Assembly (NCBI RefSeq): GCF_001619985.1 | Contig: NW_017264198.1 | Location: 1-64,000 of the forward strand | From: Xylona heveae TC161 | Lineage: Eukaryota > Ascomycota > Xylonomycetes > Xylonales > Xylonaceae | DNA length: 64,000 nucleotides | Reading direction: 5' to 3' | The notes under the pieces: model-generated | Seen by the model: the letters and a program-made list of their open reading frames with translations, nothing else | Database searches by the model: none | Told to the model about the DNA's origin: nothing | Part shown: one piece after another, positions 811-64,000 of the stretch | Layout of the letters: each line of letters begins with the position of its first letter | How positions within the stretch are numbered: position 1 is the first letter of the stretch | Made by a program: the position numbers and the translations under genes

Positions 811-818
811 ACTATATG

Positions 819-938
819 TAGGGTGTCCGCTGGGGGTAGTGGGAACCGGTGGTCTTTGGGTTGGTCCCGGTGGCCGACCGGGGCGTGTTGGGAAAAGGGG
901 GGTCAAGACCGACCCGGACCGGACCGACGGATACCCTA
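819..938. mobile_element. hAT-type MITE, 120 bp, with 8-bp target site duplication
   Basis: A GC-rich island sits in AT-rich DNA. Its left end reads TAGGGTGTCCGCTGG; the reverse complement of its right end reads TAGGGTATCCGTCGG, matching at 12 of 15 positions. Directly outside both ends lies the same octamer, ACTATATG (811-818 and 939-946). An 8-bp duplication and short imperfect terminal repeats starting TAGGG are typical of hAT DNA transposons. The element is far too short to encode a transposase, so it is a non-autonomous copy mobilised in trans. The perfect octamer suggests a fairly recent insertion. Confidence 0.8.
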
Positions 939-1122: not shown

Positions 1123-2305
1123 CTAGAAAGCAAACAAAAGCTCATCAACTCTGGTGCTCCCATCAGTCGCCAGACATCCAATATCTTCTCGGTCTTGTAA
1201 AACTTTGTCAATGCGTTCTGACATGCCGGAAGCATGCAAAATCTTTGCAAGCGAAGCATGCATTAGCAGAAGACTGCGACTTGGAAGTTCAACATCACTA
1301 TGTTGTGTAAATTTAATGAGGCGGTGGCCATGGTCGTTTGGCTTGGGCAAAAAATAATTGAGAAATGTTGGAAACGTCTTTCCCAGGATTAGGATCTGAT
1401 ACTCGTTATCCTATTGAAATTAGCATCTATAATATCATGCTGAGAAGATGACATACCACTTCTGTCGGCTCAAGCGCAATTGCACATCTACCAAATGCAC
1501 TGTGGACTGATTCAAACAAGGTCATTGCATTAATCGGGCGGTTTATGTCACTCGGCCCTAGGCTAATTTGTGGGAAACATCTTTTTAAGGTCGTCCATAT
1601 TTGAGCAATCTCATGGTGCTGAAACCAGTTAACATGCTATTAAAACTTAGTAATGCTTTAACTAACCTCTTTTGTATTTTTCCATTGAGAGATTGAAAAC
1701 GGCAAGATATGAGCAAGTTCAAGGTCCCCCGTCATGCCCTCTCTCTTCTTGTCATCGTCTGCCAATGCATCAGAGAATCCAGTGAGCATGCACTGAAAAT
1801 TGTCTCTCTCGAGACACATTGCTTTTAGCTTGCGTTGCTCGATTCTGCTTGGTGACTCTGTGATTAAAGCAGCAATTTCCTGCTTTATAGCTTCATTATT
1901 TGAAAAGGGCGAGGGGGTAATGCCCGGTGTTGGCCCACGTGCTTTCACTATACAAATTGAGAATAATGCCCGAGTACATCAAAGTATTGATATTCACTTA
2001 CTAGGGACTAGGATTGTTGTCAAGAGATGATTGTAGAGATCAAATAGTGTCCCGTCATCGCTTGTTTCGACAATGAACTGGGACAGCAAGCATCTTCCCT
2101 CAACTGGTAGATATTGAATGAAACTTGATAGAACCTTTTGGGTATTGTCGTTGCTGTCTCTTGGATGATAGGACGCAATCCTATCACATGCTGCGCGGGT
2201 TTCAAAATCTGACGGAACAGTGCTAAGACTGCTTTCATTGCTGAAGAAGCTGCTAACCCTTCCAACTAAGCCTTCATTGCAGGGTTCTACAATATCAGCT
2301 TCCAT
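1123..2305 (-). CDS. HNH endonuclease domain protein
   Basis: Four exons (2305-2002, 1947-1667, 1618-1457, 1410-1123) join in frame with GT-AG introns of 54, 48 and 46 bp to give about 344 residues. The middle holds the HNH region of a large fungal family: CLERDNFQCMLTGF (about 146-159), then ELAHILPFS, whose His 181 fits the metal/catalytic histidine. A following exon carries a stretch (HHEIAQIW, later INAMTLFESVHSAFGR) that fits the usual NxxxLxxxxHxxF part. The start is the first ATG in frame. These fungal HNH proteins are abundant in accessory regions and their function is unknown; a nuclease role is inferred from the fold only. The gene is convergent with nothing nearby and runs away from the aminotransferase's 3' end. 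Confidence 0.75.
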
Positions 2306-2608
2306 TGTGGCGATGTGGGGATCCTAAAGTCGTGAGTGGATAGAAATGTGCACGCTTGGAATCTGCTAGTATAGTTGGTCCGAGGGGTCGCACTCAGACG
2401 AGCGATCTACCAAAGGCGGTGGGGGAATTGCCCGCTTCAATTGTCACGCTTTCCTTATCAGGTATCGCGCACCATTATTTTTCACTCACACGTGACAGAG
2501 ATTTTCCTTCTCTGGCCTAAACTCGACGCCCAAATAGAAGCACCCAGCGCCCAGGAATCACACATTCAACTTGTTATATTTAACAATAAGATAATATAGT
2601 AATTAAAT
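2306..2608. other. Spacer between HNH gene start and aminotransferase stop
   Basis: About 300 bp. It must hold the promoter of the HNH gene and the 3' end of the aminotransferase gene. I see no distinct motif or RNA gene. Confidence 0.4.
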
Positions 2609-4118
2609 TTATACTGGAATAGCTTTCAACTTCTCAATAACTTCTTTAATAACGTAAACTGCTTCCTCCAAGTAGGGAAGCTGAATTTCATGACCTGAAC
2701 TACATGCCTCTAGCAAAGCATAACCATGCTGATAGCGATCAGCCTCATTCTGGAAATACAAATAGCTCGTAGCTATTCGGAGTCGGAAGCGCCCGAACAT
2801 GGGCCCAGTATCATCCTCTCCAAAGGCAGAGCCCGGTAGGGCAGCAAGTCCACACTCCCGGATTAGCCACGTCGAAAGGTCGGCGCTGGTAAAGATACCG
2901 AGCTTGTTAAGCTGGGCTGCATAAGGGGAGAAAGACGGATACAGATAGAAAGCACCGCGGGGTTCTCCGATGTCAAGACCGAGATCTTTCAGTGTTTGGT
3001 ACATTCGAGTTGAGCAGTATCTATGCAACGCAGTCACTGACTTGCGATAGGCGACCATATCTTGGCATGTGGAGAACGCCTTCACGGATGCCAATTGTGC
3101 AGGTGCAGAGGCTGCAGACCAACATTCGGAAGCATATGCTAGTATTGTATTGCGGATCGTTTCTCCTGTTGGCGAGGGTGGAAAGATAGCATAACCCACG
3201 CGCCATCCCCCGGCGGAGTATGTCTATACGAGAAATTTAATATATACGGTCCAATAAAAGGCGAGGGAATCATTGCCTTACCTTGGATAAGCCACCGGTG
3301 AGAATAACAGTTTCGGAATCGTTGGATTTACTGTCAAATGCACTGATTGCCTTCTGGGTTTCATCAAAGCAGATGTCGGAATAGATCTCATCGGTGATTA
3401 GAGCAATCCCCTTCAATTTACAGAAAGATTTGATGGTTTGGATACAGTCAGCCGAGAATACATGTCCCGTTGGATTCGAAGGGCTGTTTATCAGCATGAT
3501 TCGAGGGTCAGCCCCTTCTGAGATTGCATTCTCATATGCAGCGGTAAGAGCGGCCTCTGTGCATTTTGTCAATTTTAGGGCTTAAGATGTCTTTTTGACT
3601 GGGAAAAAACTTACCAGTAATGGTATGACGGTCAAGAGCATCTGTCTCGACCCAGAAAAGCTTCTTTCCAGCATGTAGTACTTGTGGCTCATAGCTGACC
3701 CACGACGGACGAGGAAGCAGGACATCGCCCTCAAGAACATCAAACAAGGCAAATAGAAGTGGCTTCGAGCCAGGAGCTACAACGACTTGATTGGGGCTGA
3801 TTGTTACATTAAGACGATCTGCATTAAAATCTGCAATTGACTTCAGTAATAAGGTTAGCCTTGGTCTTGATGGTGAAAGGAGTACAGCGAACGAACCTTC
3901 CGCAGTTCCTCCGTACCGGCCACCGGCATATAACTTGTCGTGCTCGAGGCTTCTCGATATATCCGGAGAACATCTTTTTGAATTGGAAATGTAGCCTCTC
4001 CAAAACCCAGGTGTACAACATTTTTGCCCTCTGCACGTGTCTTTAAGACAAGCTCGTTGATCCCGAGGGTGGGGGAGATTTGGAGCTTTGCAGCTGTTGA
4101 TCTAATGACATTGGCCAT
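2609..4118 (-). CDS. PLP-dependent aminotransferase, class I/II
   Basis: Exons 4118-3897, 3840-3615, 3556-3282 and 3223-2609 encode about 445 residues; introns are 56-58 bp. Visible fold-type I marks are a glycine-rich N-terminal substrate region (LGFGEATFP), the NSPSNPTG motif, ITDEIYSDI with the PLP-ring aspartate, and GLSK-TYSAGGWRVG, where Lys 241 should form the Schiff base with PLP. That lysine is the last codon of exon 3. A C-terminal FRLRIATSY arginine fits the carboxylate-binding residue. Length and motifs fit aspartate/aromatic aminotransferase-like enzymes; the substrate cannot be told. It is transcribed divergently from the Zn2Cys6 regulator across 626 bp, which suggests co-regulation with the terpenoid genes but does not prove it. 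Cytosolic by lack of any targeting signal. Confidence 0.85.
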
Positions 4119-4744
4119 ATTGGTGTAATTATGCTCGGAATATTTTAAAGATTAAAGTTCATCAAATCCTGCGTCGAGTTATTGCCTTGTATTTATATAT
4201 CTATGGTATCAATTGCTGCCAAAGTTACGTTAGGGTTCCCTCGGTGAAAAAGCACCGAAACGCCGCTGTATGTAAACCCAGGAAACTCGGAAGATGTGGA
4301 TGTTCTACACCTTCTTCCTGCTAGCATCTGTAACGCTACATTTTTATTTGGATCTGTAACTGATTAATTCTTGATGGTCTGCTCTATGTAAAGCAACTGG
4401 TGCAGGTATTATCTATAGTATTAATGAAGCTCAGCTTATATACAGCGGAATATTGCTCCAATATCTACTATATCACCAAGGAATCCTCGTCAAACCAAGC
4501 TCAAGCACGTGATTGCAGAGCGATTCGGCGATTCAAACGCCGAGACACCCCTCCCGTACCCATTTACAATCATGCGACCAGCTCCGAAACACCGAGATTT
4601 TTGCCACCCGTCATTACCGCTTTACTCCTCCTATTAGTGATAGAGCATCACTCATATCTACTTAAGGTAAGTAAGGTAAATAAGTAATATATACAGGGAC
4701 TAATCGTCAGTGTCATTGCTACCAATGTGCTTCTCACGAATGAG
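4119..4744. promoter_or_regulatory. Divergent promoter of aminotransferase and Zn2Cys6 regulator
   Basis: This 626-bp spacer separates two divergent start codons, so it must carry both promoters. It holds several CCG/CGG-containing words and the palindrome listed separately at 4526-4542. Confidence 0.6.
4526..4542. promoter_or_regulatory. CGG-N11-CCG palindrome, candidate Zn2Cys6 operator
   Basis: The sequence is CGGCG, seven bases, CGCCG: a perfect 5-bp inverted repeat, with the outer CGG and CCG triplets separated by 11 bp. Inverted CGG triplets are the classic recognition form of dimeric Zn2Cys6 factors, and an 11-bp gap is that of Gal4. It lies about 200 bp upstream of the cluster's own Zn2Cys6 gene. 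Binding is an inference. Confidence 0.45.
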
Positions 4745-7084
4745 ATGCCGATGCAGTCTCGCCTGAAAACTCGCAAGGCCTGTGCTCTCTGTCATGAACG
4801 CAAGATTAGGGTGCGCAACCCCACCCAAGTTTTCTCATAAGCTATGCTTACAATTGATCTCGATGTTGACGGCAGTGCGATGGTGCAGCTCCAAATTGCC
4901 GAAATTGTCTCCGAGCGCAAGCCATTTGTAGACCGCATGAGAGGCGACGTCGCTTCACTGATCGTCCCTCTTCTAGTGCCAATGCAGACGACCATCTCTC
5001 CGAGACTGCACGGAGGCTTGCCTGGTTAGAATATGAAATTCAAAGAGTTTTTGGTGTTGATATCCGTCCGATGAGCACAGGTACACCTTTGGACTGTCTC
5101 TCGCCCAACAAACGCGTTGAACGTGCAGAGGATGACGTCCGGATGGGAATATCTAATGCCGCGCCTTCTCAGACTCCTCATTATCGCCCTTCAGTATCTT
5201 CAAACGAAGAGCAACCCGAAAGACCTCACGACGTAGACCCAAATATAAGCCTGTTGGTGTTGAATGCTACCGGTGAAGTCCGTTATCTGGGTGCATCGAG
5301 TGGCTCTTTCCTCGCCAAATATATTGCAAATGTTGCCCAGTCGTCTCTTTCAAGAAACCACAGACTTTGCTTTAGCTCGGAGGGGCGTGAAACGCCTTTG
5401 GTCTCGAATTCCAATAGGGATTCTGTTTTTATACCTACGAATTGGAGAACTTCGGAGACATTTCCATTTCTCTTGCGCTGTTACATGAGATGGGTCAATA
5501 GCATATATCCGTTGTTCTCGGATGACTATATTACAATGCTGGAATCGTTTAGTAGCTCGAGTAGTTTACCCGAGAAGAATGGCGACGTAGCCGTCATTTT
5601 CTATCTGGTGATGTCAATAGGTGCCATTCACTCCGAACAAGCGCACCTTCTCAACGATATACAGGGAGACACAGGCATTCCGGCTTATCAAGACGCATCA
5701 AGTCACGGTCTGTCAGCGGAAACTCTCTACCAGAACGCTACAACTCTGCTAGAGTCTCAGATCAAAGGCTTGACTCCTCGTATTAATCTAGTACAAATTC
5801 TCAATCTTATATCCATATATGCATCTCATCGACCATCCGATAATAAACAGTGGCATGTGGGGGGAATAGCTATGCGAGTAAGTTGATAGCACTGAAGATA
5901 ATGGAGGATTGTATTGACTTTGTCAAAAGCTAGCAATTGAACTAGGCCTGCATCGGCATATTGACAGCTGGAAATTTACCGCCGATGAATCTGAGCTGCG
6001 GCGTCGGGTATTCTGGACCACCTATGCCATTGAGATTACTCTGGCTTTTAACCTTGGTCGACCAGCGAGTATCTCCTTTGAAGATGCCGATGTGCCATTC
6101 CCTAAAGCAACAGAAGATATGATTATGCCCGTTCATCATATCAGACACCGGCAGATTCAGGAACAGATGTTGTTTCAAGTCTATCGTGGGAGGAAGGACA
6201 ATGCTTTCCCTACAACTGAAGCGCGAGAATCTGTCCTGAGTACGCTGCAAAAAAAATTGGACAGATGGCACCAAGATCTGCATGATCTTCATTCACGTTC
6301 CACATCGCCGTATCCCGTAGAGTACTGGGATCGGCTATACTACTCTACATCTGCTGCACTTTGTCGACCAACCCCTCTTCTTCTTCAACCCGGACCCCAC
6401 TTGTATGAACAATGCTTTTTATTCTCGGGGAAAGTAATCGATATCTACGACAAGCTTATCCGCCAGTTTCGTCTTCCCAATTCATGGATGTTGCTACAGG
6501 GTCTCACACTTTCAGCAGTCTCAATGATTGTGACAGCCAGAATCAACGTACATGCTTTGTCTAGGAGAGTTGGGATTGAGAATCTCCTGGACAATTTGAC
6601 TACATGTGTCCGCAAACTCTATGTGGTCACGGCTGTAATGAGAGAGAGATGTCCTGCCTTTGCAACTAACAATCTAGAGGATTTAATCGATAAGCTGTCT
6701 CGAGATACTGTCCGGCATATCATTAGCCTGACAGTAAACGAAGGATCTACAAGTACATCGTTACAAAATACGCCAAACCATAATGCAGTGCTGCCAGCGA
6801 CTCCGTCAATGCCCCATTTAGGACCTAGTGGGGACGAGCCATCAAGTCCCTCTGTTGCATGTGTTGATCACATGCAACATGATTCAAATAGCCTGGGCAG
6901 CTTAATGAACGCTGCATCTGGTCAGCAAGCACTACACACATCACACCCAGTAATCGACCCGGGACTTTTGGGATTCGATTCTGATGCAAATTGGGGTTTA
7001 TTTGATAACTTGTTTGAAACTAATGAACTGCAGGCTGTATTAGACTTGTTTTCCGGCGAGCAAAATACCCATCTCTTTCATTAA
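4745..7084 (+). CDS. Zn2Cys6 fungal transcription factor
   Basis: Three exons (4745-4810, 4876-5877, 5930-7084) encode about 740 residues. The N-terminus is a canonical binuclear zinc cluster: Cys at 13, 16, 23, 30, 33 and 40 (C-x2-C-x6-C-x6-C-x2-C-x6-C), followed by a basic ERRRR tract. The first intron falls exactly before the third cysteine. The middle (roughly 130-480, including LAIELGLHRHIDSW and RRRVFWTTYAIE) matches the fungal-specific transcription factor domain. The C-terminus is rich in Ser/Pro and ends in an acidic/hydrophobic stretch that could activate. Nuclear DNA-binding regulator. Lying between the aminotransferase and the terpene synthase, it is most likely the pathway-specific regulator of this locus, possibly acting through the CGG palindrome in its own promoter. 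Confidence 0.88.
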
Positions 7085-7332
7085 TCTGAGCATGGTGTAT
7101 TCGTGTGCTCGAGGAGATCAACCCTCCACGTAGCTCTCTTCTAGTCCTGATTTTGGGAAAGGACGCAGATACACAAGCCAGATTGAGAGATTAAAGCCGG
7201 GATTGGAGTAGCAAAGCCTTTAACTGTTTCTTGATGGATGTTATAATGTAATTATACGATACCTTAGAGATAGTTGTTATAGAGTTCCAACCGCTGACCC
7301 TTGCATATACACTACCAATACTATACTTTAGA

Positions 7333-9994
7333 TTAGAGCTCTAACCGTTTCTGCATCAACCTCAAGATCCAATTCTTCACCCCTGTTTTCTCTTCCAAAT
7401 TTGTCAACGCTTTGTCAACTGTCTTCTGCAATTCCAATGCAATACTCTTTGTATGCTCCAAGCCTCCGGCAGCTTTTATATCGTCTAACGCCAATTTTCG
7501 GATTTCGTGCGATAGGTCGTTGCCGGCCTTACGCTGTTGAAGGATACTTAGAAGGCGGCCACGATGCAACGACTTTGAAGCAAGGGCATGTATGAGGGGC
7601 ATTGAGAGTTTGCCCTCGCTGATATCTTCTGCAAATCCCTTTTGCTTTGTATACTGCAAGCGTGGTCAATTAGTAACAAGTCTGGGAATGTAATAACTGG
7701 ACAGGAAGATACGGAAAGAGATACATACGTCTGCATTTTCAAGATTCTGATAGTCATCGCGAACCTGGAAAAACCGGCCAACAGCCTCCATGAGCGGACC
7801 AATGTCGAGATCTTTATTGATGGTTGCTTCGGAACGCATCAACTCTGCTAAGAGAAGGAAGAGGCCACCGGTTTCTAAACAGCATTTAGAATGGAATAAT
7901 TTTAAGAGATTTCTTCAACATACTGCCATCAACCATTGCGAAATACTCCTCCTCAGTAGGTATCTCTGTATGATGCTTCCAATGTAAATCCATCCCTTGG
8001 CCAATATGGCCTTCTATAATCCTTTCTGTCAATATCGACACTGCGGCTGGAGACAGCGACTTTGCGGCTCTTAAGGCCTTAAACATGACCAGGTTCGCTG
8101 AGTTGATTGTCTGACTTATACCGAAGACAGTGTGTGTGGCAGGATATCCTCGTCTTAGGGGAGATTCGTCCTCGATATCGTCGAGCCTAGGTAGCATTTC
8201 GTTAGTATTTCAGGCTCAAACGAAAGAGACGGGGTAAGGGAAAAGTAACATCAGAGAAGCGGCATGCAATGAGTTTGCAATATCACGGATAATCTCAAGC
8301 GATTTTTCAGGAACATGGTACCAAGCCTCAAGGCCATCAATCGCAGTGTTTCTCACTCCCTTTGAAGGAAGCGATTCAATGTAGGCGTAAGGCTCCAAGA
8401 CCAGCTTAAAAATATTCAGCATTACACAGCTATGAGGTGGTCGAGCTTGTTATTTTGGGACTTACTTCTTCAAATTGAGTTAAGGAAGGGACTAATCGGG
8501 GAACGGGCAACGCGACATTTCCAATCTTTTCGTCAATAGCGTCTGTTGGATCACCTGGAGTCGTGGGCGGAGTGCTGGAGGATATGGTCGAGGATATGCT
8601 TGAGCCATCAGCATATTCCTGCTCATTCGATTCTTCCTTCTTTTGCTTGATGCTTTTTGCGACATTTTGAGATATAGGCAAAGTGAGGCTGTCAACCGAC
8701 GTGGCGGTCTTCTTCTTTGAATGTTCCGCGCGGAGTGCTGGATACGCATCTTCGTTATCAAGGTTGTAGCGTGCGGTGGTCATACTCCACGCAAAATTCC
8801 CGGCCGTGACAAGGTCAAGCAGTTCAAACCACTTCGCCGTTTTTTCGGTCAAATTTCCTTGGCCCACAAAGTCGGCCTTTTCTTTGCAATACTTCTCCTC
8901 GCGAGCCATAATTTCTTTCTTGACCATCCTCTTCGCCTCTTTTTCATCAACCGAATACCACTTCATGAAAATGAAGATGGCGCTGACTATCTCTCCAACA
9001 GAACCATTTGCCTCGTAATTTTGCCGCTCTTTCTCCCAGGAGAAGTAATCGTTTACCAGAACCCAGGCATCGTATGCAGCGCTTGTGATTCGCGCAGTGC
9101 TTTTGGTTTCGTCCTCTGTAAGCTTAAAATCCATAGAAAAGCATAAAAGACTCATAGTCCACCTGCAATATATAGTAAGCTTTTGCTCTTCGGTGAATGC
9201 GAGGCAAAGACAATGCTTACGGACATCCCGCATCGATGCCACGAAAGTACAGGTAGTCATCCAATTTCGTGAAATTGAGATCTCGTATCTGAACAAACAC
9301 ATCTGACATTTCCTTCCAGAGACGAAGACACTCCAAGCCTTGCTCTTTATCCATTTCCATCATCTCGACAGCCATTTTAGCCTGTAATTGCCTCCTTCTC
9401 ACATGATCTTTGCCGCCGGCTTTTACTTCCTCGTCAAGGAGACCTTCCACGAGCTCCTGGTTGGTTTCTCGGAGCTATACGCTGTCAGTAAAATGTCCGG
9501 AAGCGGAACCGGCCCTTGGACATATTTAGTGAAATACTCGCCTGGGATTCGTTTTTATTCTCAGCATATTCGATTACTGTACAGCTTCGAGTCAATAGTT
9601 GCAGTACTAGGGCGAAACGAAGTCACTCACCATCATCATGGATGTATGCATATTCAACCATATACGTGGTCAAGGCAAGGCGCTCAGGTATGGCCTCACA
9701 CGCACACAAAGCCGTGAAATTTCCCACAATCGGATTGATGCAGCCCACAGCATAGCTCTTATGGGCTTGATTCCGGACAGCATCGGCACGCGCGGCATCA
9801 CTGGAGTCTAGGAAATCGACTTGGCATTGCCAAGATCCTGCGTCGGCGAGATAGGCATCGCGGTGGATGCGAGGAGTAAATTTGCAAAAATACTCTTCTC
9901 GTTCATATGCCTGCGGTGGAACAGGGATAGAATGCTGATAGACGAAACTCTGTTCAGCTGGCGCTCCCTGAGCTCGGAAATGAGTGTCTTCCAT
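7333..9994 (-). CDS. Bifunctional terpene cyclase/prenyltransferase (chimeric di- or sesterterpene synthase)
   Basis: Eight exons (9994-9631, 9576-9542, 9474-9221, 9162-8466, 8404-8250, 8186-7924, 7874-7729, 7653-7333) join in frame to 744 residues, the usual size for fusicoccadiene/ophiobolin-type synthases. The N-terminal class I cyclase shows DDVIE (120-124) and the second metal motif NDYFSWEKE (255-263). A Ser/Thr-rich linker follows. The C-terminal prenyltransferase shows SLPSKGVR, the first aspartate motif DDIED (504-508), KTGGLF, and the second motif DDYQN (629-633). The prenyltransferase should elongate DMAPP with IPP to GGPP or GFPP, and the cyclase should ionise it to a polycyclic hydrocarbon; chain length cannot be read from sequence. 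Intron 2 (9541-9475) appears to use a GC donor. An in-frame upstream ATG at 10018 is possible, but 9994 has better context (G at +4). Confidence 0.93.
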
Positions 9995-11354
9995 AGGTAT
10001 TGGCGCTGGAGTGAGCATAAAATATGAAAAAATACCCAGTGATGAAAACAGAGAAAGAGCTCCGAAGGGGAAGAGGGGGGATGCCACTCTTATGCCGCAT
10101 ACAAGAATGCTTCCAACTGCAGGACTGGCAGACAAAAAGCAATTAATCAATTTCTGCACGCTTTGACATCAGCCCTTGTATGGAATTGAACTGACGATCA
10201 TAAAGATTAGTGCCACCAAGCTGTATCGTTGTGACATTGACAGGAGCTCAAAGACATATCGGGAGGCCAAGAAATGGTCTCTGCATCCACTTCTTTCCAA
10301 ACTCGTAAAGTAAATAGGGGGCGAGGGCGCCACGATCTGGTGGCACAGCTATTGGGACCTACGCCATCACGACCCGAGAGGATGAGGTTGAAAGTCAAAT
10401 TGTGGGCCAAGCGCGATCGACATGAATTCGATCAAGCAACATCCTGTTTTCTTCCCCTCGGATTTGTCTAAATATCCATCAGCTGAGCAGAAGAAGAAGA
10501 AGAAGAAGCCCTTGTTTGCATCAATTTTTCATTGCCATCCCGGTCTGAGTGACAGCGCACCATTGATGATCCCTAATTGCTTCGTCCTAAAGTGGCAATT
10601 ATAGAGGTGTAGCGGGAACGGGCCGACACTGAAGAGATAACCGAGCAGTCGCTTGATCTCATCGTGCAGTTCCTCCATCGGGATCGAGCCAATGAGATGA
10701 TCAACAACAATTCTACCCAGGCAAAAGGGAGTTGTTTCCCTTGTCCGAGACATGTGAATCCAGTCTTATCGTTCATCTCCGAGACCTGTAAGAATGCCTC
10801 CGCATTGCTGTGGAACACACCGCTATATGACTCGCTCTATCCTTGTATGGTGCCTGGTTACAGAGACGTGGCCAGCGCCTTTATGTTGTGAGAGAGAGGG
10901 GAATCCCAGCTGGTTGGTACATGGTCAGCTGGTCGATTGGCGTGCAGCGATGCTACAGATGCCCACGCAGTCCCCAGTGGCTGGCTGAACAGCAAAGATT
11001 TCAACCGCTGTCGCCCCACACTGGCTGTATACGAGTAGAGGGGTAATAACCCGCAATCTGGAGCTGCAGCTCGATCGTCGATTGTCAATCGGGATGCAAG
11101 GTGTGCGGGTGGAGTCATGGGTATTGATTGACCATAATCCCCAGACCAGGTAAACACGTAAAAAACTACCGACGACTTTTCGTGGATGTTGGAAAATCTT
11201 GGAGTTACGGGTGCCGTACTAGGTTTTTTGCTCTCTCTTTCTTGCCCTTGGTTTTGCGCTGGTGTTTTCGTGAAGAATCTCCGTTGGAAGCCTCTACAAA
11301 TCTGCGTCTTTCTGGACAATTGCATTTTTACCCTACGCGGAAAACCTGTTCAAC
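9995..11354. promoter_or_regulatory. Divergent promoter region of terpene synthase and P450
   Basis: This 1.36-kb spacer lies between two divergent start codons and must hold both promoters. It contains a short GAA-repeat tract near 10489-10508. Short open frames occur on both strands (for example 10529-10818, minus) but none resembles a known family or has convincing splicing, so I call no gene. Confidence 0.5.
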
Positions 11355-13146
11355 ATGGGCGTTCTGACTCTCGGGGTTGTTGTGCCTATTACTTTGGTAC
11401 CTTCTCACATCCTCGCCATTCAATGGCACGTTATGGCCACTTACTACAAATCATCTAACCTCGATGCAGGTATCCTTAATCCTTTCAAACGCCGTCTTTA
11501 ATCTCTATTTTCACCCTCTAAAGAATTTTCCGGGGCCTTGGTTTGCCGGGGCGTCAAGGCTGTGGTACAGTCTCAAGGTTTTCCAAGGGCGCCATAAATA
11601 CGCAATCAAAACCCTTCACGACGATTACGGTCTCGTCGTACGCATTGCACCAAATGAGCTCTCATATATAGATCCAGGTGCTTGGAATGACATCTACGGT
11701 ATGATTTCGTATTCGAAATGAAAGCGACACGATGAGGACCTAACGAGCAATTTCCTTAGGCAAGAACGCGCACCACAACGGATCACACACACTGGAGAAA
11801 GAGACCGGCACTTTTGGTGCTGGCTTTGGAAACTCTGAAACGCTTGTATGCATCGTCCAGGCTCGTGTGCTATGATAGACTTACCAATTTATGTCTTCAG
11901 GTTGATGCCGACAGCACGACATACAAAGCCCAAAAGAAAAACGCTCTGCGAGGATTTTCCCACCAAGAACTGATTAAAAAGGGGGGCATAATGACATTCT
12001 ATGCCGACGATTTCATCCAAAATCTCAAAAATTCTTTTGAAAAGGGAAACCTCGGGGCTGTTAATATTGATGCATGGATCGGAAATACAATACTTGACAT
12101 ACATGGCAAGCTCGTCATTGGCCAGGACTTTGGAGCGATCCATAGGGGGCCTCTGCTTCACTTTATCGTCAAGTCTATGCACAAGGCCGTGACTGTTATA
12201 CAATACGTTGCGCTGCTTCAATATCTACCTCGAGTGTTTACTTCTTTACTTTCTTTGCCGATATTTCCCCGTCGTGATATATTCGCAGTATTCAGCAACT
12301 TACCTCCACTCGGTCCAGCAATCAATGAGCGTATAGCAACTGAGAAGGGTTTGGACAAAAGCTCAGATATGGGTAAGTATCAATCCTCCTTCAAGTTATA
12401 ATTCGAGCTCAAACAATCAAAAGTCCATCACATGATGGCAGAAGGAACAATCGACCACGACACCATTAGAAAAAACTCATTCATTTTAATCCTCAGTGGC
12501 GTTGAGACACTCCCTGGCTACATTTGCTCTATTCTCTACTACTTGCTCGAAAATCCGCAATACTTTGCCAAAGCTAGCAATGAGATCCGGATAAGCTTTC
12601 AGAGTCAAGATGAGATTACACCCGCTTCAACACAGGATTTACCATATTTAAAATCCTGCTTGAATGAAGCTCTTCGTTTATCGCCGCCCTTTGTGGGTGC
12701 GCTACCCCGTCGAGTCCCTCCAGCCGGCGTAACAATTTGTGGTCAATTTGTACCCGGGGGTACGATAGTAGGTATACATAATTGGTCTCTGACGCACAGT
12801 ACACGTTATTGGAAGAATCCAGAACAATTCAGACCCGAGCGTTGGCTCGGTGACTCGGCATACGCAGATGACAAGCGGGAGTATTTTCGGCCTTTTGGCT
12901 TTGGGCCCAGGACGTGTGTTGCGAGGCAGTAGGTGGCACGAGTCTTAATTTTCTGGACACACTTACTGACTTTTGTTTAGTCTTGTTATTATAGAGGCTG
13001 GATTGATTCTTGCAAAGATCCTCTTTGAATTTGACATGGAATTGGACGCCTCTTGCGGACCTCGCTGGCCAATTAATAGAGGGCACCTTGTTCCAACTAG
13101 GCAACCGCTCGTTGTTACAGTTAAATCACGTACTGGGAATAAGTAA
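11355..13146 (+). CDS. Cytochrome P450 monooxygenase
   Basis: Six exons (11355-11396, 11470-11698, 11760-11845, 11901-12372, 12442-12928, 12981-13146) encode 493 residues, normal for a microsomal P450. The N-terminus is a hydrophobic anchor followed by the hinge FHPLKNFPGPW. The I-helix oxygen-binding region reads SGVETLPG. The K-helix ExxR is in NEALRL, and the heme loop is FGFGPRTCVAR, with the thiolate Cys split from the following exon by intron 5. The residue two after Cys is Ala where Gly is usual. Anchored in the ER, it should hydroxylate or further oxidise the terpene made by the adjacent divergent synthase; the substrate is inferred from position only. An NADPH-P450 reductase would be the partner and is not in this window. 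Confidence 0.92.
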
Positions 13147-18188: not shown

Positions 18189-19537
18189 TCATTGAGGCCG
18201 TCGCGCGGTCCAGATATGCCTATTTCAGTTGTTAGTTTTCTGTAAAGGTCATTGCAAGTTGTGATAAGAGATGAGTGACTCACATATTATTATATGCGTG
18301 TATCTTCTTGTTGCACATATGTGCTTTGACGTCAACAATCAGTCTCCGAACGTCCTCCGCAGGCCAACCGTAGACTCTTGTCAGCGGCCCAAGGCTGAGG
18401 GCTTCCAGGCCTTCAGTTAGGCCAAGATTGTACCAGCGTCCAATGTCCTTTTCGTGTAGGCTCGCGGGCCACGAGTTGAGCGGAATTCGAATGACATTCT
18501 CCTGAATATCCACGAAGCCCTGCATCTCCAACATTTGCCGAGTGTTACGTTGATAAGCCACGGGTCGCGAAGCGCGCTGGGTTGCATCGTCTAGCCAATC
18601 GTACCACTGCACCAGGGGGTGATAGGGCATTGTTCCGTCATCGCAGCGGGGTAGCATATCGATCTCAACTTGTTCCATATATCCAAAACCAGGTTTAAGA
18701 TGCCTGGCCAGTTGTGTCAGCGCCAATCTTTCGAAGACCAAATACTAGAAAAAAAACATACTGGAATATCTTTTGATATAATTCCGGCCAACTCGACACG
18801 CTTCCTGCTCCCATTCGAAGGTGGATCAAATCCCAAGACTCTTCTCCGAGATACCAAGGGCTTTCGTAATCACGAGGTATACGAAAACGCAAGTTGGGAG
18901 GAATCCTATTGAGATGGGTAAGAAATATGATTAAGGTGCGGACTTTGAGGATCGGGATCTCACTTTTCAGGTTGAATATTTGACAAATCCATCCCAAGGA
19001 CCTTGAGCACGCAATGATTAGCGAAACGCAAATAAAACACACCCTCGGTCGAAGCTTACTTCGGCATCCAAGTATTTACTAGAGGGAAATCCATTGTCAG
19101 TAAACTTTCCTATGATGATTCCAATGATGGGACAAAAGCACTCACTCTGCCATGTCAATAGCCCAAATGCCTGTGCCGGTTCCCAAATCCAAAATCCTGG
19201 GTGGGCCATAATTCGGTCGGATTGGGGCTTGGTGTAGTTTTTCGTGACAAGCTACTAGGAAAAATTTGTGGTAAATGTCCATGCGGTCTTTTTCTTGCTG
19301 TATCGATGTATCAGATCAGTGTCGGGCAAGAGCACAACGAATCGAGACGCTTACCTCATCGCAAGGATACATGTAAATTCCCTTTCGAAAGCCATGGTAT
19401 AACCGTCCGTTTTCCATATAGTTGGGCGGAACTGGAGCAGCCAGTCTGGTCGTCGAAACGAAGGCGACAGTTAGTCTTTGTTTCCCATCCACTGCACTGC
19501 ATTTTGAGGCATACCCATTTGTTGACATTATGACCAT
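18189..19537 (-). CDS. LaeA/VipC-like SAM-dependent methyltransferase
   Basis: Eight exons (19537-19515, 19445-19355, 19297-19146, 19078-19060, 19001-18964, 18905-18762, 18703-18284, 18219-18189) give 305 residues. The SAM-binding motif I is [16 protein letters not shown]. Other family marks are [82 protein letters not shown] and the tail [18 protein letters not shown]. These place it with the LaeA, VipC, VapB and Llm methyltransferases, which act with velvet proteins in the nucleus to control secondary metabolism and development. Whether it is the LaeA orthologue or a paralogue cannot be decided here. Exon 4 is only 19 nt but restores the frame and the expected motif perfectly. The start is uncertain; the N-terminus is short compared with LaeA. 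Confidence 0.87.
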
Positions 19538-54011: not shown

Positions 54012-55462
54012 CTAGATCTTTGTTTTGAGTATAAAGCCAGTCTTAGCAATACGCGCAGCTGCCAAGAACAAAGCCGCTGCTATGACGACGGTTCCTCCCC
54101 ACACAAATGCACCTACATACTTGTCTCCTTGACTTTGAATGATAGCACCACCAACGGACGGGCCCGTCAACGGTCCGAAACTCATAATCGAAACAATCAT
54201 ACCGACACGGGTACCAATCTTGCTCAAATCATCCGTCAAGGACGGCACAGTTGCGGCAAACAAGCTCATGGCCGCGGCAGAAAAGACACCATAGGCAATA
54301 ACGAACCCGTACAGCTCGCCAGGTGTCGATACAGCTAGCCAGCAGTAGAGACATATACCAGAGAGCGCGGTACATGGGATGAGCGTGTTCAGAGGCCCGA
54401 CCCATCGATCGGATACATAGCCTAATAGAGGCCGCACTGGCATCCCCACGGCGTTCATAATCACAATCAGATCGACAGACTTGCGATCACTGAAGCCAAA
54501 TCTGCCCTGCGCATAGGGTTGGACCTACAAATCCCCCGGATAAGAACGTCAGTAAGACTTGAAACTCATGACTGCAATCTGCGGGTGAAGTGAGGCAAAC
54601 GTACGTAGAAGAATGCAAAATAGACAACCCAGTAGAGTAAAAGTACTCCAATGCAATATAATGAGTATGGTGCCTCTTTGAAAGCACTCAGCTCTACAAA
54701 TGGCCCAGACTGTCGCGGCGGCAGGCGGGTCTTGAAGAGCAGGTTAAAAATGATGGCAAAGACAAGGACAACCAATGCCATGCATCGGACAGACCACCCG
54801 AATCCTGGAAAAGTATTTATTCGTCAGCCCCTGAGTCTTCTATTGAACTTCTTCAAGATGTTCTCGTGAATGCAGGGCTTTGAATACCCGAATCCGGGGC
54901 CAAGGTGAGGCGTACCAATTTTTGGAGTCAAATATTGCACCATAATCGGAAAGATGATACTTCCCGTTCCTGTTCCTGCAGCGGATAATGTCACTGCCAC
55001 GGCGCGCCAACGAACAAAATATGTTGCTATCAGCGTTACGCTAGGCAGCCACAAAAGGCCAAGGCCGATTCCCACACATATTCCCTGTGCAAGGAAGACC
55101 TGCCAGTATTTTGTCGCAAAGCTCGTGGTAAGTGTGCCCACGACCAGAAGAACCGAACCTGAAAAGATGCTATGTCGAGCAAGGCCGGCATCTGTGGCTC
55201 GTCCAGAGAATGTTGAAATGAAAAAGAGCAGAAAGACCTGCACGCCACCAATCCAAGAGATATCCGATGGAGAATGTCCCAGCGTCTGCTCGTAATGCGT
55301 TTGGAAGACACCGAACCCGGTTGCATATCCCCAGGTCACGGCATTGATTAAATGACCCGCGAAGACTTGTAACCATGCTGTCAGGCCTCCATCTGGAGGT
55401 GGCTCAGGGCTCAATGGCTGGCTCTCAGTATCTGAGGTGGGATTTGCGCGTTCAGACTTCAT
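54012..55462 (-). CDS. MFS transporter, monocarboxylate-porter type
   Basis: Exons 55462-54916, 54804-54605 and 54524-54012 encode 419 residues. The start MKSERANPTSD is the first real ATG; the frame upstream opens only with TTG. After a short hydrophilic head, PPPDGGLTAWLQVFAGHLI is the typical first span of fungal monocarboxylate-type (MCT/Mch) permeases. Further features are GVFQTHYEQTLG, SWIGGVQVFLLFF, the loop GRATDAGLARHS, RAVAVTLSAAGTGTGSIIFP, and the second half with RPLLGYVSDRWVGP and SFGPLTGPSVGGAII; about 12 membrane spans in all. The plasma-membrane substrate is unknown (monocarboxylate, vitamin or metabolite). Its upstream region carries four copies of a 12-bp motif. Confidence 0.88.
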
Positions 55463-56941
55463 ATCAAAATAATGGAATTTTCTGTTGGGCGTATGGGAGA
55501 AGTGCTGGTCTCCTGATTGAGATATAAAATCGGATCTATTCGAGTTGACTTGCAAAGAAGAATATCAAGACTTTCCCAAACCATGAGCGGACTCAATGGT
55601 TTAAATAATGCATATCTTCTGCCTCTGGCCACCGCCATTGTGACTCTATTAAAGCTGATTGACTGATAAATTTTGCAGATTTCTGCCCGGCCCGGTGACA
55701 TGTGGATCTGTGGGAATTACAAAGCAAATTTTGTCGGTGCATGTTTGCTCGATGGTCCAATGCCTTGAGACTATAGTTTCATTCAACGAAGAAAGAGCGA
55801 TTGCAAAACCAACAAAACGAACATCCATGCCTGTGCACCAAGGAAAGCAGCGGGGTGCCGTCCGAGGGCGTCATCGAGGGCGTCATTAGCGACATTTTAT
55901 ATAGGAGTGAGCCGGATACATTATCGTTCCCCGGCGGTTGAAAGTTATGAGCTGCCTGGCTAGGGAAAGTTTTCCATGAGCGAGGGCGTCATTTGCCCAA
56001 GGGTTCTGAAGCAGACTGCGGCAAAACCGGCGAATTAAGTGGTGCGATTGCGGAAAGTGGGGAGCTGGTTGTGTGAATCCATGCGTTCCCCTCCTCGACG
56101 GCAGGCTTTCTTTTTCTTGGTTGTGCGTAAGCAATAGATCGGCCAATGAACCATTGGAGCGAGTGCATTAGTGGGCAAGTCGTTGTAGAATGACGCCCTC
56201 GATTATCTGGGGTTGGTCGGAAAGACCGGAAAAACCCACTGCACCATCCCGGTGGGTTGATAGTCAAGGAGCCTTGAGAAATGATAAGCACGAGCTTCAT
56301 GTCAGTATCTTTGATTCGAATATGAATTCACATGAAAATTACAGTACAAGGCGACCCTCTAATTTCAATATCATGTCTTCATTCCGTATCAGAAAAGCAT
56401 TAATCTGCGCTGTCTTTACTTTTGAAACGGGGATCGTCGTATGGAGGCTGTTTATCTGCCGCGAACAAGTCAACTATTTCTCGGTTAAGGGACCCTGATT
56501 TTAGCGCTCCTTGGCTGTCGGTTATTCTACTTCTAGCACTGTAAGTTAGTTGAGCCTTTACCTACTTTTGACTGTGACTTTATAGGCGCAGGCGCTGCAT
56601 ATTATTTGAGCCTGGCTATCTATTTAGATATTACAGAAGATGCTAAAAAGGATCAAGATCAAAAAAATGTTCCAATATTCAGGAGTCTATCTCAATAGAC
56701 GGAAGAATTTGACATTTTACCGGCGGAACTTTTTTTGAAGGAAATTAAAAATTTTGTGAAATGGAATTAAAAAACTGAATATTGTCTAGATGGTCTAAAA
56801 ATGGATATTTCACTCTAAAATAATAAATAATGGTGAAATTTCTAGATTGAAAACTGCACTGGAATTTACCTGGTCACCAAATGGTGTAAAATACCTCCTC
56901 GGCCCTTGAAGTCTGCAAGCTATGATGAAGAGCAGCAATTT
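55463..56941. promoter_or_regulatory. MFS upstream region with four copies of CGAGGGCGTCAT
   Basis: The 12-mer CGAGGGCGTCAT is present exactly at 55863-55874, 55875-55886 and 55981-55992, and inverted at 56190-56201. The nearest start codon is that of the MFS gene (55462), about 400 to 740 bp away. Four perfect copies of a 12-mer in 340 bp suggest binding sites for one regulator; the inner GACGCCCTC/GAGGGCGTC core is GC-rich in moderately AT-rich DNA. The remainder to 56941 is AT-rich and gene-free. Confidence 0.6.
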
Positions 56942-57936
56942 TTAAGAACTATGGTTGGTCTCTATGATCGCACAAGCCTCCTTCAACTGAGCTGCCAATT
57001 TATCAGGCTAGATGAGGCAAAATATCATTAGCTCAGGATGACACCTGTTAAGATAGACAGAATGAAAGACGGAGAGGCTTCTTACATGGTCCTCAAACAT
57101 GTTGAAATGATGGCCGGGAACGTCGAGTACTTTTTTGATCAATTCAAGCTCGCCAGTCTCCCATCCAAGGAGAGGAAGCTCTCTTCCAGTATCAGTCTTG
57201 TTGATCTCCTCGGGTAATTTCCCTATCGCGCGAAGCAACACAATATATGGAAGACGAGGTGGTTCTTCGCTATTTCCATGCCCAGCAGGACCACTAAGAC
57301 CGGGCGCCACAGACCAGTCGGCTCGCTTGGTCGGGGCAGTGTGCCTCTGTACCATTCTCAACGAGTCACCGATGCATTTCTGAACCCGTTCTCTAAGCCT
57401 CGGCGGACAGCTTCTTTGGAATGGAACTTTGGGTTCCTGCGCTGGCGCCATGATATTGGGGCAAGGCGAGTCGATCATGATGACGCCTGCAACGGCGACC
57501 CGGCCGGCAAGTTTCCGAGCAACTTCAATCGCTAGAATGCCTCCGAGAGACCAGCCTGGAAAACAACGAAAGAGATTTAGCCCAATCTGTTTCATGAGCT
57601 CTGACGAGTCCTTCGAGATGGATAATTTCTCTCAGGCCTTTTTTTTTTCTCTGTCATATGGCACTGACCTCCAAGAATAATTCCATTCTGCGGCTTGGTC
57701 TTCTCAATGTCCCGCGCGTACGTTTGTGCCATCTCTAGTAGACCACCTTTCCATTGGTTCCCACTTTCGAACTTTGGATTGTGGATCCCATAGAGGGTTC
57801 GTCCCAGATCCGGCAGCAAATGATAAGCATAAATCGTCCCTCCGCCATCGTGGATGAGGTAAAGAGGCAGCGAACTGAAATTCTTCGAGGCCTGGATCAG
57901 TGAAGGATTACCGTACACGTTCGCTTGGAAATCCAT
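56942..57936 (-). CDS. Free-standing thioesterase (alpha/beta hydrolase)
   Basis: Three exons (57936-57669, 57555-57086, 57007-56942) encode 267 residues. SLPLYLIHDGGGTIYAYHLL is the oxyanion-hole strand of PKS/NRPS-type thioesterases. The nucleophile elbow GWSLGGILAIEVAR is split by intron 1 before its Trp. Further on, VIMIDSPCP follows strand beta6, and VPGHHFNMFEDH carries the catalytic His. The last exon, PDKLAAQLKEAC, matches the usual C-terminal helix. Such proteins release or edit polyketide or peptide chains in trans, but no PKS or NRPS lies in this window. It has no signal peptide, so it is presumably cytosolic. It may pair functionally with the adjacent same-strand transporter. Confidence 0.85.
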
Positions 57937-59038
57937 AATGGATGTCGAACACGTCCTCTTCGCAGACTAAATACGAAACTTAGCAAAATTTGAATCGCGA
58001 GTTGATCATGCTCATTTCGAAAGAAAACGAGAATGAAAAATTACTTAGGATAGCCATGTAGTGTGGAAATTTTGGCCCTCTCAGTCCTTTGTTGCCTTGA
58101 TTTGGGCTGGGCCGACACTGAGTAAAGTATTACCTCCATGTATACCAATGACGTCGAGGTCTTTGTAAGAACATGCCAGTGTAAGAGGCTCTGAGTGAAC
58201 AAATATTAGTTTGGTTTTCTCATCCGTCCTCTCAGTCTAAGTGAACATTTTGTCTTATAGAAATTAGTAAATTCTATGCATCTCGTCGACGTTAGAAAAA
58301 GGCACGAATTCAACGTAAAATTCGATAGAGACTTAGATCTCACTCTCCGCAGTCTACGCTCACTTGACAGACCGAGAATATATGTGCTATCATTTCCCTT
58401 AGAAAAGGTGTATGTACTTCTATCTACAAACTGAACCTTAACTTCGTTCCTGTCGTCCACCTCGTCATTGACTCAGCGATGCACATTGCGAACCCAGCGA
58501 TACACAGAAACATTCGCAAACATAACACTAATCCACACTGCAAATCCTGGCCTTGACCCGTATAGTGCAAAATAGTAACCCGACAGATAACTGTGCTCAA
58601 AGTTTGGCGAAGAAGAATAGAATGTCAAGCCAAAGTTGGAAGGGAAAAGTTGGTCCGTTCAACTAAAAAGGATATCTACGAAATAGCCGCCGTCTAAGAA
58701 TGAAGGGGGCAAAATTGTAGAGGAAAAAGACATTCAACAAATTCGGAACAATTTTCATGTGACCGACAAGTCGGGGTTGAAAAAAAAAAAAAAAAAAGGG
58801 TCCGGTTTGGAAATATATGATATGTAAAGTGTATCATGATCCCATTCTCCTCTTTCCCAGGAACGCTTGCCTGTAAAAATCGGTATCATGTTCGTAAGGT
58901 TAAAATGGAAATCCAGTGAACGCCGGTTCCAATATTATAATAACTCCATTAGGGAAAATCCAGCCGATAAAGACGGGAATTGGTACCCAGGCAATGGCTA
59001 AAGGAGATTGAAGATGGACGTGTAGCGGACGAGACACG
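57937..59038. other. Spacer between thioesterase start and histidine kinase stop
   Basis: About 1.1 kb holding the thioesterase promoter and the kinase 3' region. An A-run lies at 58780-58797. No gene seen. Confidence 0.45.
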
Positions 59039-62000: not shown

Positions 62001-63879
62001 GGTGTTTTTGGCCGGCCAAGAGAATGTATGCTTCGTTATACAGTGTGACCATATCTTCGCCCCAATACAATGCGGCTGGATGTGGACTTGCCATGATTAG
62101 GTTGCACATCTGCCGCAAATCAGCCGGCCACGTCTCCATAGGCCCTAAACTAGTCGACGCCCAATCAACACTCCGGGCAAACTGTATGTGCGAAGGTAGA
62201 TCGGGAGAATTCGCAAGTCGTGTCCAGTCAAAAAATCCCCGGTCTAAGGCAGATCGCGGACTGACAAGTGCTTCGGACAGCACGGTGCTCGCACTAGGTA
62301 GAGGAAGACTTGCTGGAGCCGGGGAACCTTGCTCAAACATGAAGATCTCAGTGTCCTGAAGATTGCCAGGCGAAGGCTCGGGAAGCCCCAACCCTTCCTT
62401 ACGCGTGCTATGGGAAATTCCAGGAGACTCAATGGTCGAGAGCGGGGGGTCCTCGGAATTCACTGCTCCATGTACGGTACCTATGGTTGCCAAGGGCACA
62501 CCGGAAAAGTAATCCTGCGGCTCCTCTGGATCCTTGGTCTCCACCTCCATGTCATTTCGGCGACCATCGACCGATAAAGTTGCAGAAACGATTGAAGTCT
62601 CCGTGAGGGGTGGATTTGAATAGTCCGCAGAAGAACCCTCAGAGGGGAGAGTTCCAGCCGGCGGAACTACCTGGGCCTTAATTATGCGAAACCTCTTCCT
62701 CATTGTCAAACTGGTCCATGTGACGCCTGCGTGAGTAAATGGAGGCAGGTTCGCATCGACAGACTTTGATTCTGTGACCAAGGCGGTGGCCCAGGCTTTG
62801 AACTCGGAGAAGACGGAAGAAGACGACGACGTCGATGATGAAGGGGGTCCGGGCCCAGGCGACATGGGCGTTATGCCTTCACCAGCAATGGACCTCAAAA
62901 GTCGGCCAGATGCGCGCAAGGCTGAATTTGCGAACAGAATATGTAGAGGACCAGGGCCGTAGTTGGTAGCATTTGCAAGGTCAATGACAAAGCATGCTCG
63001 ATCGTCATGCTCCAGAAATTCAGCCAAACCAACCTGAGCGAGGAGCTGCAGGCCCGGAGCGTGTTCGCCAAGGTCGGGAGTGATACTTCGAGGCAAGTTG
63101 ATGCGGTTGAATGAGGCACGACTGCCAGGCGTGCTAGTTGCCCGAGGTGGGCTCCCACCAGCGAAGCTGCCACGCGCGAGCGTAACCGTCTTCACGGTGG
63201 TATCTTCGCCACGCGCTTTGCTCAGCATCTTGGCTCCAGCTTCCTCGGTTGAGAATCGGGGTGGCAGCGGCGGCCTTGCTCGGGACTTGCGCGAGAAGAA
63301 GAGCGGCGACGGGGGGCCTGGGTTGGTGTTGACAGCGCCGCGGTTGAACAAGGCTGAATCGAGCGAGTGACGAGACCTCAGCCACTGCCGTTTTCTTCGT
63401 CGGTGTAAGCCGTGATCCGCACTCTTGGTCGAGTCGAGGTTCTGTGCCTCAAGTGGCAGGGAGGCCTTCCTCTTTCTACCCGCAATGGTCGGCACGGAGG
63501 ACTTTGGGGACAGAGGCGCTCCGCTCAGAGACGAAGATGAGGAAGACGGCTCAGTAGATTCCGCCTTAGGGCGTGTATTCGAGGTGGACCACGACCATGA
63601 TGTCGACTGCGAGAGGTTCTGGTGAGTAGGATGGCGGTGGGTATGCCCTGGAGTTGGTTCCGACGGCGTAACAGAAGGATGGTAGAACGGGCGGGGGCTG
63701 TATCCACGATCTGCAGAGGAGTTTGGCGGGCGAAAGGGTTGAGGAGTTGAATAAGCAGCTGCTTGGCTGGGTGTCGCGGGTGTATGACGCTTCTGACTCT
63801 GATCTGGACGCGAGGGAGAGTGGTTTTGGCCACGATTGGAGTCTCGTGGAACGGTGAAGATGGATCTGGGGTTATTCAT
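59039..63879 (-). CDS. Hybrid histidine kinase with PAS and GAF-like sensor regions
   Basis: Three exons (63879-61897, 61823-60569, 60504-59039) encode 1567 residues. The first 560 are low-complexity and Ser/Pro-rich. A PAS-like sensor starts near SVDWASTSLGPMETWPADLR (about 585) and runs across intron 1. A GAF-like region follows, then a second PAS (FAPVGMLIANSEGHITYCN). The kinase core has the H-box SHEMRNP with phosphoacceptor His 1088, the N-box INLTTNAIKF, NDTGRGL and GGSGLGLFISREL. The C-terminal receiver has VLIVEDN, the phospho-acceptor Asp in ILMDLEMPVMDG (about 1474), VTANT and SKPF. It should pass phosphate through a single Ypd1-type carrier to Skn7/Ssk1-type regulators. No membrane span is visible, so it is probably cytosolic. 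The exact fungal HHK class is unresolved. Confidence 0.93.
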
Positions 63880-64000
63880 GAACGTAGAAGCGCCACAGCC
63901 TCGGCACGCCTCGTCCTGATGAAACGCAGGATGAATGACAGGTAAAGGGATTCAACCAAGTTTGTCAGTTTGGCGACAGTAGTAAATGGCGAGAGACGAC
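63880..64000. other. Upstream edge of histidine kinase gene
   Basis: The last 121 bases belong to the leader or promoter of the minus-strand kinase gene; nothing further can be said. Confidence 0.5.

What the first reader, a model, noticed from the sequence alone, without database searches (positions are those of the whole stretch)
2609..13146. Compact chimeric-terpene-synthase locus with its own regulator, a P450 and an aminotransferase
A bifunctional cyclase/prenyltransferase, a P450, a Zn2Cys6 factor and a PLP aminotransferase lie together in 10.5 kb with alternating strands. All four look intact. A minimal set with one P450 implies a lightly oxidised di- or sesterterpenoid. I do not recognise this gene set as a described cluster.
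Basis: partly seen in the sequence, partly recalled or inferred. Interest (0 to 1): 0.75.

Follow-up and report, generated by a model that had tools for sequence, protein, structure and literature searches.

The report
Ordinary two-gene fungal terpenoid locus
A fungal endophyte's genome carries an intact two-part terpene-making enzyme beside a likely partner oxidising enzyme, an uncharacterised example of a known type of natural-product locus, and the public gene model of the first enzyme leaves out part of its catalytic site.

Summary
In detail: four intact genes at 2609-13146 on alternating strands: aminotransferase (AT), Zn2Cys6 regulator, chimeric terpene synthase (PTTS), P450. AT and P450 equal Xylona heveae TC161 proteins. 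The best-supported pathway unit is smaller: PTTS plus P450, divergently transcribed. Three other genomes in the P450's five-row clade carry PTTSs of the lineage next to Xylona's, with consecutive locus numbers in Chrysothrix but different contigs in Zasmidium. The AT is a broad fungal aminotransferase; its closest clade is Aspergillus/Penicillium, none of those named species being listed with this PTTS clade. The regulator's targets are untested; no promoter words are shared above control. Likely product: a C25 or C20 type-B hydrocarbon, oxidised by the P450; inferred from 64% identity to a Nectria nigrescens enzyme, probably nigtetraene synthase. Extra: the deposited PTTS lacks 44 residues including the DDVIE metal motif, at a 35-nt exon before a GC-AG intron; five related records are disrupted at the same exon. 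New member of a known kind.

The parts
7333..9994 (-). Chimeric class I terpene synthase (N-terminal cyclase, C-terminal trans-prenyltransferase), 744 aa. Exons 9994-9631, 9576-9542, 9474-9221, 9162-8466, 8404-8250, 8186-7924, 7874-7729, 7653-7333
   Evidence: spliced model, end; Pfam; homologues; motifs
9542..9576 (-). 35-nt exon 2 (between a GT-AG intron and a GC-AG intron) coding the second half of the DDVIE metal-binding motif; absent from the deposited protein
   Evidence: DDVIE/DDLIE stands at this place in 30 of the 41 other rows of the clade, P0002-P0042 (counted)
11355..13146 (+). Cytochrome P450, 499 aa, with ExxR (EALR), SGVET and the heme stretch FGFGPRTC (meaning of the motifs recalled)
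   Evidence: identical to P0049; clade of 5 rows at SH-aLRT 100
9995..11354 (.). 1360-bp divergent intergenic region between PTTS and P450
   Evidence: no words shared with 4119-4744 above control
4745..7084 (+). Zn2Cys6 / Fungal_trans regulator, 740 aa; candidate but untested regulator of the PTTS-P450 pair
2609..4118 (-). Class I/II PLP aminotransferase, 445 aa; neighbour, probably not part of the terpenoid pathway
4525..4543 (.). Palindrome TCGGCG-N7-CGCCGA (CGG-N11-CCG spacing) between AT and the regulator; a possible binding site of the regulator itself
   Evidence: only copy in the window; 8 places in the genome against 3 for the reversed control pattern

Best explanation
A compact terpenoid locus whose core is two divergently transcribed genes. 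The chimeric synthase makes a C20 or C25 polyprenyl diphosphate from IPP and DMAPP in its C-terminal domain, then ionises and cyclises it in its N-terminal domain, most likely by the clade II route (type B, C1-III-IV) to a bicyclic or higher hydrocarbon. The P450 then hydroxylates or further oxidises that hydrocarbon. The Zn2Cys6 gene may control the locus. The aminotransferase is an adjacent gene of separate history and probably general amino-acid metabolism. Shown: gene structures, domains, catalytic motifs, and the partly shared distribution of PTTS and P450. Inferred: substrate length, cyclisation type, reaction of the P450, and regulation.
For: Both PTTS domains with all four metal-binding motifs. 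Closest relatives are PTTSs; P0006 'BFT [Nectria nigrescens]' is 64% identical and is probably NnNS, reported to make the type-B 5/11 bicyclic sesterterpene nigtetraene (PMC9605422 passages). The best solved relative is variediene synthase, 377 bits for the whole protein and 129 bits for the cyclase part. P450: a clade of 5 rows at SH-aLRT 100 (Xylona, Zasmidium, Aspergillus multicolor, Chrysothrix, a sequence filed under Quercus suber), with identity 50-55% inside and at most 37% outside it among the 120 listed rows. Of 35 other species named with this PTTS clade (rows P0002-P0042, hand count), 3 of the 5 in the lineage next to Xylona's and 0 of the other 30 appear in that P450 clade (Fisher p 0.0015; ignores relatedness; 7 of the 30 were not in the tree and were placed by genus or order). 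In Chrysothrix the PTTS is M1828_006866 and the P450 M1828_006867, both with contig length 342522. AT: its 9-row clade (SH-aLRT 99) is otherwise Aspergillus/Penicillium, none of the eight named species being in the PTTS listing.
Against: In Zasmidium the P450 and PTTS are on contigs of different length (2323717 and 626513), so linkage is not universal. Chrysothrix has a second PTTS of the clade (P0033) on another contig. A. multicolor has the P450, but no PTTS of this clade was listed for it; Septoria and Pseudocercospora have the PTTS but no listed P450 of the clade. Xylona's grouping with that PTTS lineage has only 83% SH-aLRT. Absence from a word-based, capped list (best 120 of 196 P450 matches) is not absence from a genome. 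The cyclase-part bit scores do not separate clade I from clade II cleanly: EvVS 129, 9vsh 114, TvTS 113, FgGS 102, EvSS 101, EvAS 101, PaFS 82, PbSS 81. No expression data were available, and the regulator's homologues were not searched.
Confidence: 0.8

Rival explanations
1. All four genes form one cluster: the regulator drives PTTS, P450 and AT, and the AT transaminates an oxo group made by the P450, giving an amino-terpenoid.
For: Physical contiguity within 10.5 kb. AT and regulator are divergently transcribed from 626 bp that hold a CGG-N11-CCG palindrome. The AT is the only close copy of its family found in the genome, next matches 25-29% identity.
Against: AT homologues are widespread in fungi; its closest clade is Aspergillus/Penicillium with no named overlap with PTTS-bearing species, and Chrysothrix, Zasmidium, Septoria, Pseudocercospora and the Q. 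suber label are absent from the best 120 of 4802 matches. Most of its listed PDB and NCBIfam matches are amino-acid transaminases, though no NCBIfam cut-off is reached. No shared promoter words above control. Two papers hold all five terms and one holds five of six; by title and abstract start none describes such a cluster (not read).
Confidence: 0.08
2. The PTTS pair is a silent or relic locus that makes nothing in Xylona.
For: The deposited synthase lacks the DDVIE motif; intron donors GCGAGT and GTTACT are unusual; the locus lies near a contig start with GC 0.36 in the first kb.
Against: The genomic frames are open and every catalytic motif is present once the 35-nt exon is included; the skipped segment is present over all 44 columns in 28 of the 47 other listed proteins.
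Confidence: 0.1
3. The P450 neighbours the synthase by chance and acts on another substrate.
For: On different contigs in Zasmidium; present in A. multicolor without a listed PTTS of this clade.
Against: Consecutive locus numbers in Chrysothrix; three of the four other members of the P450 clade carry PTTSs of one lineage; Zasmidium and the Q. suber record fall close together in both trees.
Confidence: 0.12

Closest known systems
NnNS, nigtetraene synthase of Nectria nigrescens (MW685621 in PMC9605422, passages seen); probably P0006 here (that the two records are one is inferred)
   Same: Same PTTS clade, 64% identical, same kinds of motifs in the same places (DDVIE, NDYFSWDKE, DDVED, DDYLN)
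   Different: It lies in another group than the Xylona lineage; no Nectria protein is named among the 120 listed P450 matches
Two-gene PTTS + P450 sesterterpenoid loci: EvSS/Stl-P450, NfSS/NfP450, AcldAS/AcldA-P450, AuAS/AuAP450, AtAS with a P450, PstA/PstB (PMC9605422 section 3.2, read)
   Same: One chimeric synthase with one P450
   Different: Different synthases and products; their P450 sequences were not compared here
EvVS, variediene synthase (PDB 9e2h)
   Same: Same two-domain architecture; best-scoring solved relative
   Different: Only 129 bits over the cyclase part; the aligned EvVS metal motif reads DNVVE where this one is DDVIE

Membership tests
Fungal chimeric terpene synthase (PTTS) | N-terminal class I cyclase domain with DDXXD/E and NSE motif | tested here: met
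   DDVIE and NDYFSWEKE, Terpene_syn_C_2 68.6 bits
Fungal chimeric terpene synthase (PTTS) | C-terminal trans-prenyltransferase domain with two DDXXD/N motifs in the same protein | tested here: met
   DDIED and DDYQN, polyprenyl_synt 179.2 bits
PTTS clade II (type B cyclisation) | Phylogenetic place with characterised clade II enzymes | tested here: inconclusive
   Groups with P0006, probably NnNS (type B); no tree with the characterised PTTSs was made; PDB scores favour EvVS but not cleanly
PTTS clade II (type B cyclisation) | Product formed by C1-III-IV cyclisation | not testable with these tools
   needs product analysis
PTTS + P450 biosynthetic locus | P450 beside the synthase | tested here: met
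   1360 bp apart, divergent
PTTS + P450 biosynthetic locus | P450 shared with the synthase across species | tested here: met
   Met in part: clade of 5 rows, 4 from genomes with this PTTS clade, Xylona included; consecutive locus numbers in Chrysothrix; exceptions Zasmidium (different contigs), A. multicolor (no listed PTTS), Septoria and Pseudocercospora (no listed P450)
PTTS + P450 biosynthetic locus | P450 oxidises the synthase product; co-expression | not testable with these tools
   no expression or chemical data
Four-gene cluster including AT | AT distribution follows the synthase | tested here: not met
   (capped lists)
Four-gene cluster including the regulator | Regulator distribution follows the synthase | not tested
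   the three protein searches went to PTTS, P450 and AT

The most novel reading that the evidence does not exclude
The adjacent aminotransferase, acquired from an Aspergillus-like source, has been recruited to aminate a ketone made by the P450, so that the locus makes an amino-sesterterpenoid, a product type I did not see described for PTTS clusters in the listings or in section 3.2 of PMC9605422.
Probability: 0.05. Interest if true: 0.75.

Novelty: new member of a known kind. Interest (0 to 1): 0.33.

Why it matters
It adds an uncharacterised synthase-P450 pair in a little-studied fungus and makes a product prediction that one expression experiment can check. The practical point is wider: a 35-nt exon carrying half of the essential metal motif is missing from the Xylona deposit, and the same place is disrupted in five other deposits of this clade. 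Four of those five, and the Xylona one, have no DDXXD/E left in the cyclase part. A genome-mining study that weighs that motif in choosing candidates (as PMC8307374 says it did) could pass over such records although the genes may be intact.

Tried and rejected
Triterpene (C30) product: considered because TvTS and MpMS are chimeric C30 synthases (PMC9177416, passages). The cyclase part scores 112.5 bits to TvTS against 128.6 to EvVS. Not excluded, only thought less likely than C20/C25.

A methyltransferase in the cluster: the Chrysothrix P450 record P0052 is fused to a methyltransferase domain. Its first 245 residues found nothing significant in the window (best E 0.37), so I do not take the window's LaeA-like methyltransferase as its counterpart.

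Shared promoter element: no shared words of 10 or more between the two divergent promoters; 7 shared 9-mers against a control mean of 8.1. The CGG-N11-CCG palindrome with CGCCG arms occurs only at AT/regulator, so there is no evidence that the regulator acts on PTTS/P450.

Structure prediction was not used. The spliced synthase is not letter for letter in the window, so by the tool's description it would not be accepted; relatives could have been folded, but I judged that this would only confirm the folds.

Extent to the right: Pfam was run on 20 of the 190 stop-to-stop frames of 90 aa or more; roughly 20-29 kb was not scanned.

Papers: twelve papers hold 'Xylona heveae' and 'terpene' (listing only, none read). 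In one search, 12 of 142 matching papers were listed, none with 'Xylona heveae'. In one search all 8 matching papers were listed; none holds 'chimeric terpene synthase', so none joins it with Xylona. PMC8307374: outline with abstract, Results section and a term search, with no 'Xylona' in the main text; its supplement, which lists the tested enzymes, was not available. PMC9605422: passages and section 3.2. PMC9177416: passages.

Rows left out: PTTS tree 35 of 48 listed proteins plus the model; P450 tree 33 of 120 listed rows plus the model; AT tree 36 of 120 listed rows. Only the best 120 of 196 P450 matches and of 4802 AT matches were listed. The trees are quick searches with SH-aLRT only; two distant rows of the PTTS tree (Diplodia, Bisporella) have long branches.

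Full report
What is there. The window is the start of contig C6 of a 24.28-Mb, 17-contig fungal assembly. The AT and P450 models are letter-identical to Xylona heveae TC161 proteins P0169 and P0049, and the deposited PTTS P0001 is the same protein with 44 residues missing, so the source is taken to be Xylona heveae. The four genes alternate in strand: AT minus 4118-2609, regulator plus 4745-7084, PTTS minus 9994-7333, P450 plus 11355-13146. They form two divergent pairs, AT/regulator (626 bp apart) and PTTS/P450 (1360 bp apart), whose inner ends converge with 248 bp between (from coordinates). To the right lie a TrkH potassium transporter, a LaeA-like methyltransferase and, further on, genes such as TFIIA, CDC20-type WD40 and WDR75-like WD40; 20 of 190 frames were scanned. 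To the left are only about 2.6 kb before the contig ends, so a further cluster member beyond cannot be excluded.

The synthase. Eight exons give 744 aa, with Terpene_syn_C_2 and polyprenyl_synt domains above cut-off and the motifs [19 protein letters not shown] and RDDYQN. It is the only Terpene_syn_C_2 match found in the assembly. The deposited protein equals the model minus residues 90-133. That segment holds the DDVIE motif; its last part is coded by a 35-nt exon (9542-9576) followed by an intron with a GC donor (CCAG/GCGAGT). Of the 41 other proteins of the clade (P0002-P0042), 30 have DDVIE or DDLIE at this place (counted by hand). Of the other eleven, five (P0024, P0027, P0030, P0033, P0041) keep [11 protein letters not shown] and are disrupted at or within a residue of the exon-1/exon-2 junction, one of them (P0033) keeping the end of the exon's coding. 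P0027 still reads DDANE by chance, while P0001, P0024, P0030, P0033 and P0041 have no DDXXD/E left in the cyclase part. The remaining six lack more of the N-terminal part or differ there. The simplest reading is that gene predictors repeatedly miss this short exon; that those genomes contain it was not checked in their DNA.

The P450. The four proteins grouped with it are from Zasmidium cellare, Aspergillus multicolor, Chrysothrix sp. and a record filed under Quercus suber (taken to be a fungal contaminant because the same label carries a PTTS, P0041). They form one clade of five with SH-aLRT 100, at 50-55% identity (the Q. suber one over 44% of the query); the next listed row is at 37%. Chrysothrix, Zasmidium and the Q. 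suber record also carry PTTSs in the group next to Xylona's (SH-aLRT 83 with Xylona, 99 without). Chrysothrix has the two genes with consecutive locus numbers, and a second PTTS of the clade elsewhere. Zasmidium has them on contigs of different lengths, A. multicolor has no listed PTTS of this clade, and Septoria and Pseudocercospora have no listed P450 of the clade: these speak against strict linkage. By hand count, 3 of 5 other species in the near PTTS lineage and 0 of 30 elsewhere carry the P450 (Fisher p 0.0015). This ignores shared ancestry, relies on a capped list, and places 7 of the 30 by genus or order because they were not in the tree.

The aminotransferase. Its nearest proteins are A. 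terreus (81%) and A. ambiguus (80%), then five other Aspergillus and Penicillium rows at 75-77%, then a broad set of fungi at 54-64%. In the tree Xylona sits in a 9-row clade otherwise of Aspergillus/Penicillium (SH-aLRT 99; it includes P. waksmanii, 64% identical), next to A. terreus and A. ambiguus (80). This suggests horizontal transfer or sorting of paralogues, but no control gene was run to show what vertical identity would be. None of those eight named species is in the PTTS listing. Some Aspergilli, A. terreus and A. calidoustus among them, have PTTSs of other kinds (PMC9605422), and whether the AT lies near them could not be tested. The AT scores best against aspartate and other amino-acid transaminases, without reaching any NCBIfam cut-off, and is the sole close copy found in its genome. 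I therefore leave it out of the pathway.

The regulator. It has Zn_clus and Fungal_trans domains and only distant relatives in its own genome (24-56% identity over parts). The palindrome TCGGCG-N7-CGCCGA at 4525-4543 fits a Zn2Cys6 site (recalled), but it lies in the AT/regulator promoter and occurs 8 times in the genome against 3 for the control. The two promoters share no more words than random window pairs. Its targets are open.

Mechanism. By established PTTS chemistry (abstract and Results of PMC8307374; PMC9605422), the prenyltransferase domain builds GGPP or GFPP and the cyclase domain ionises and cyclises it; clade II enzymes use C1-III-IV cyclisation. P0006, 64% identical, is named BFT from Nectria nigrescens and is probably NnNS, the nigtetraene synthase described in PMC9605422 (MW685621); that the two records are the same is my inference. 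A 5/11 bicyclic C25 product or a further-cyclised relative is therefore my first guess, C20 the second. PMC8307374 also notes that close PTTSs can make different products, so this is a guess about type rather than structure. The P450 would hydroxylate or oxidise it, as in the six PTTS+P450 examples of PMC9605422 section 3.2.

Verdict. Real and intact; no description of it was seen in the papers searched (listings), and it is of a known kind. The unit with comparative support is two genes, not four. The skipped exon is the most useful new point.

Noticed in passing
window 9475-9727: The deposited Xylona synthase (P0001) omits 44 residues with the DDVIE motif; P0024, P0027, P0030, P0033 and P0041 are disrupted at the same exon junction, suggesting a recurrent annotation error at a 35-nt exon with a GC-AG intron.
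   Followed up: partly
window 2609-4118: The aminotransferase is 80-81% identical to Aspergillus terreus/ambiguus and nested in an otherwise Aspergillus/Penicillium clade, although Xylona belongs to another class (recalled); possible horizontal transfer.
   Followed up: partly
window about 18283-19417 (ends not determined): A methyltransferase gene on the minus strand with LaeA-like sequence (LaeA likeness recalled; Methyltransf_23, coordinates of pieces) lies about 5 kb beyond the P450; LaeA is a global regulator of fungal secondary metabolism (recalled).
   Followed up: partly
window 812-935: A patch of 65% GC beside DNA of 31% GC, with inverted ends (TAGGGTGTCCG ... CGGATACCCTA, by eye); five other partial copies at 76-90% identity in the genome: a possible small inverted-repeat transposable element.
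   Followed up: partly
window 54827-63951: An MFS transporter piece, a thioesterase-like piece and neighbouring frames with PAS, HisKA, HATPase and receiver domains (hybrid histidine kinase) near the right end; possibly the edge of another cluster.
   Followed up: no
window 1658-2323: Two minus-strand frames left of the AT, perhaps exons of one gene, HNH-like by recall but with no Pfam match for the separate pieces.
   Followed up: no
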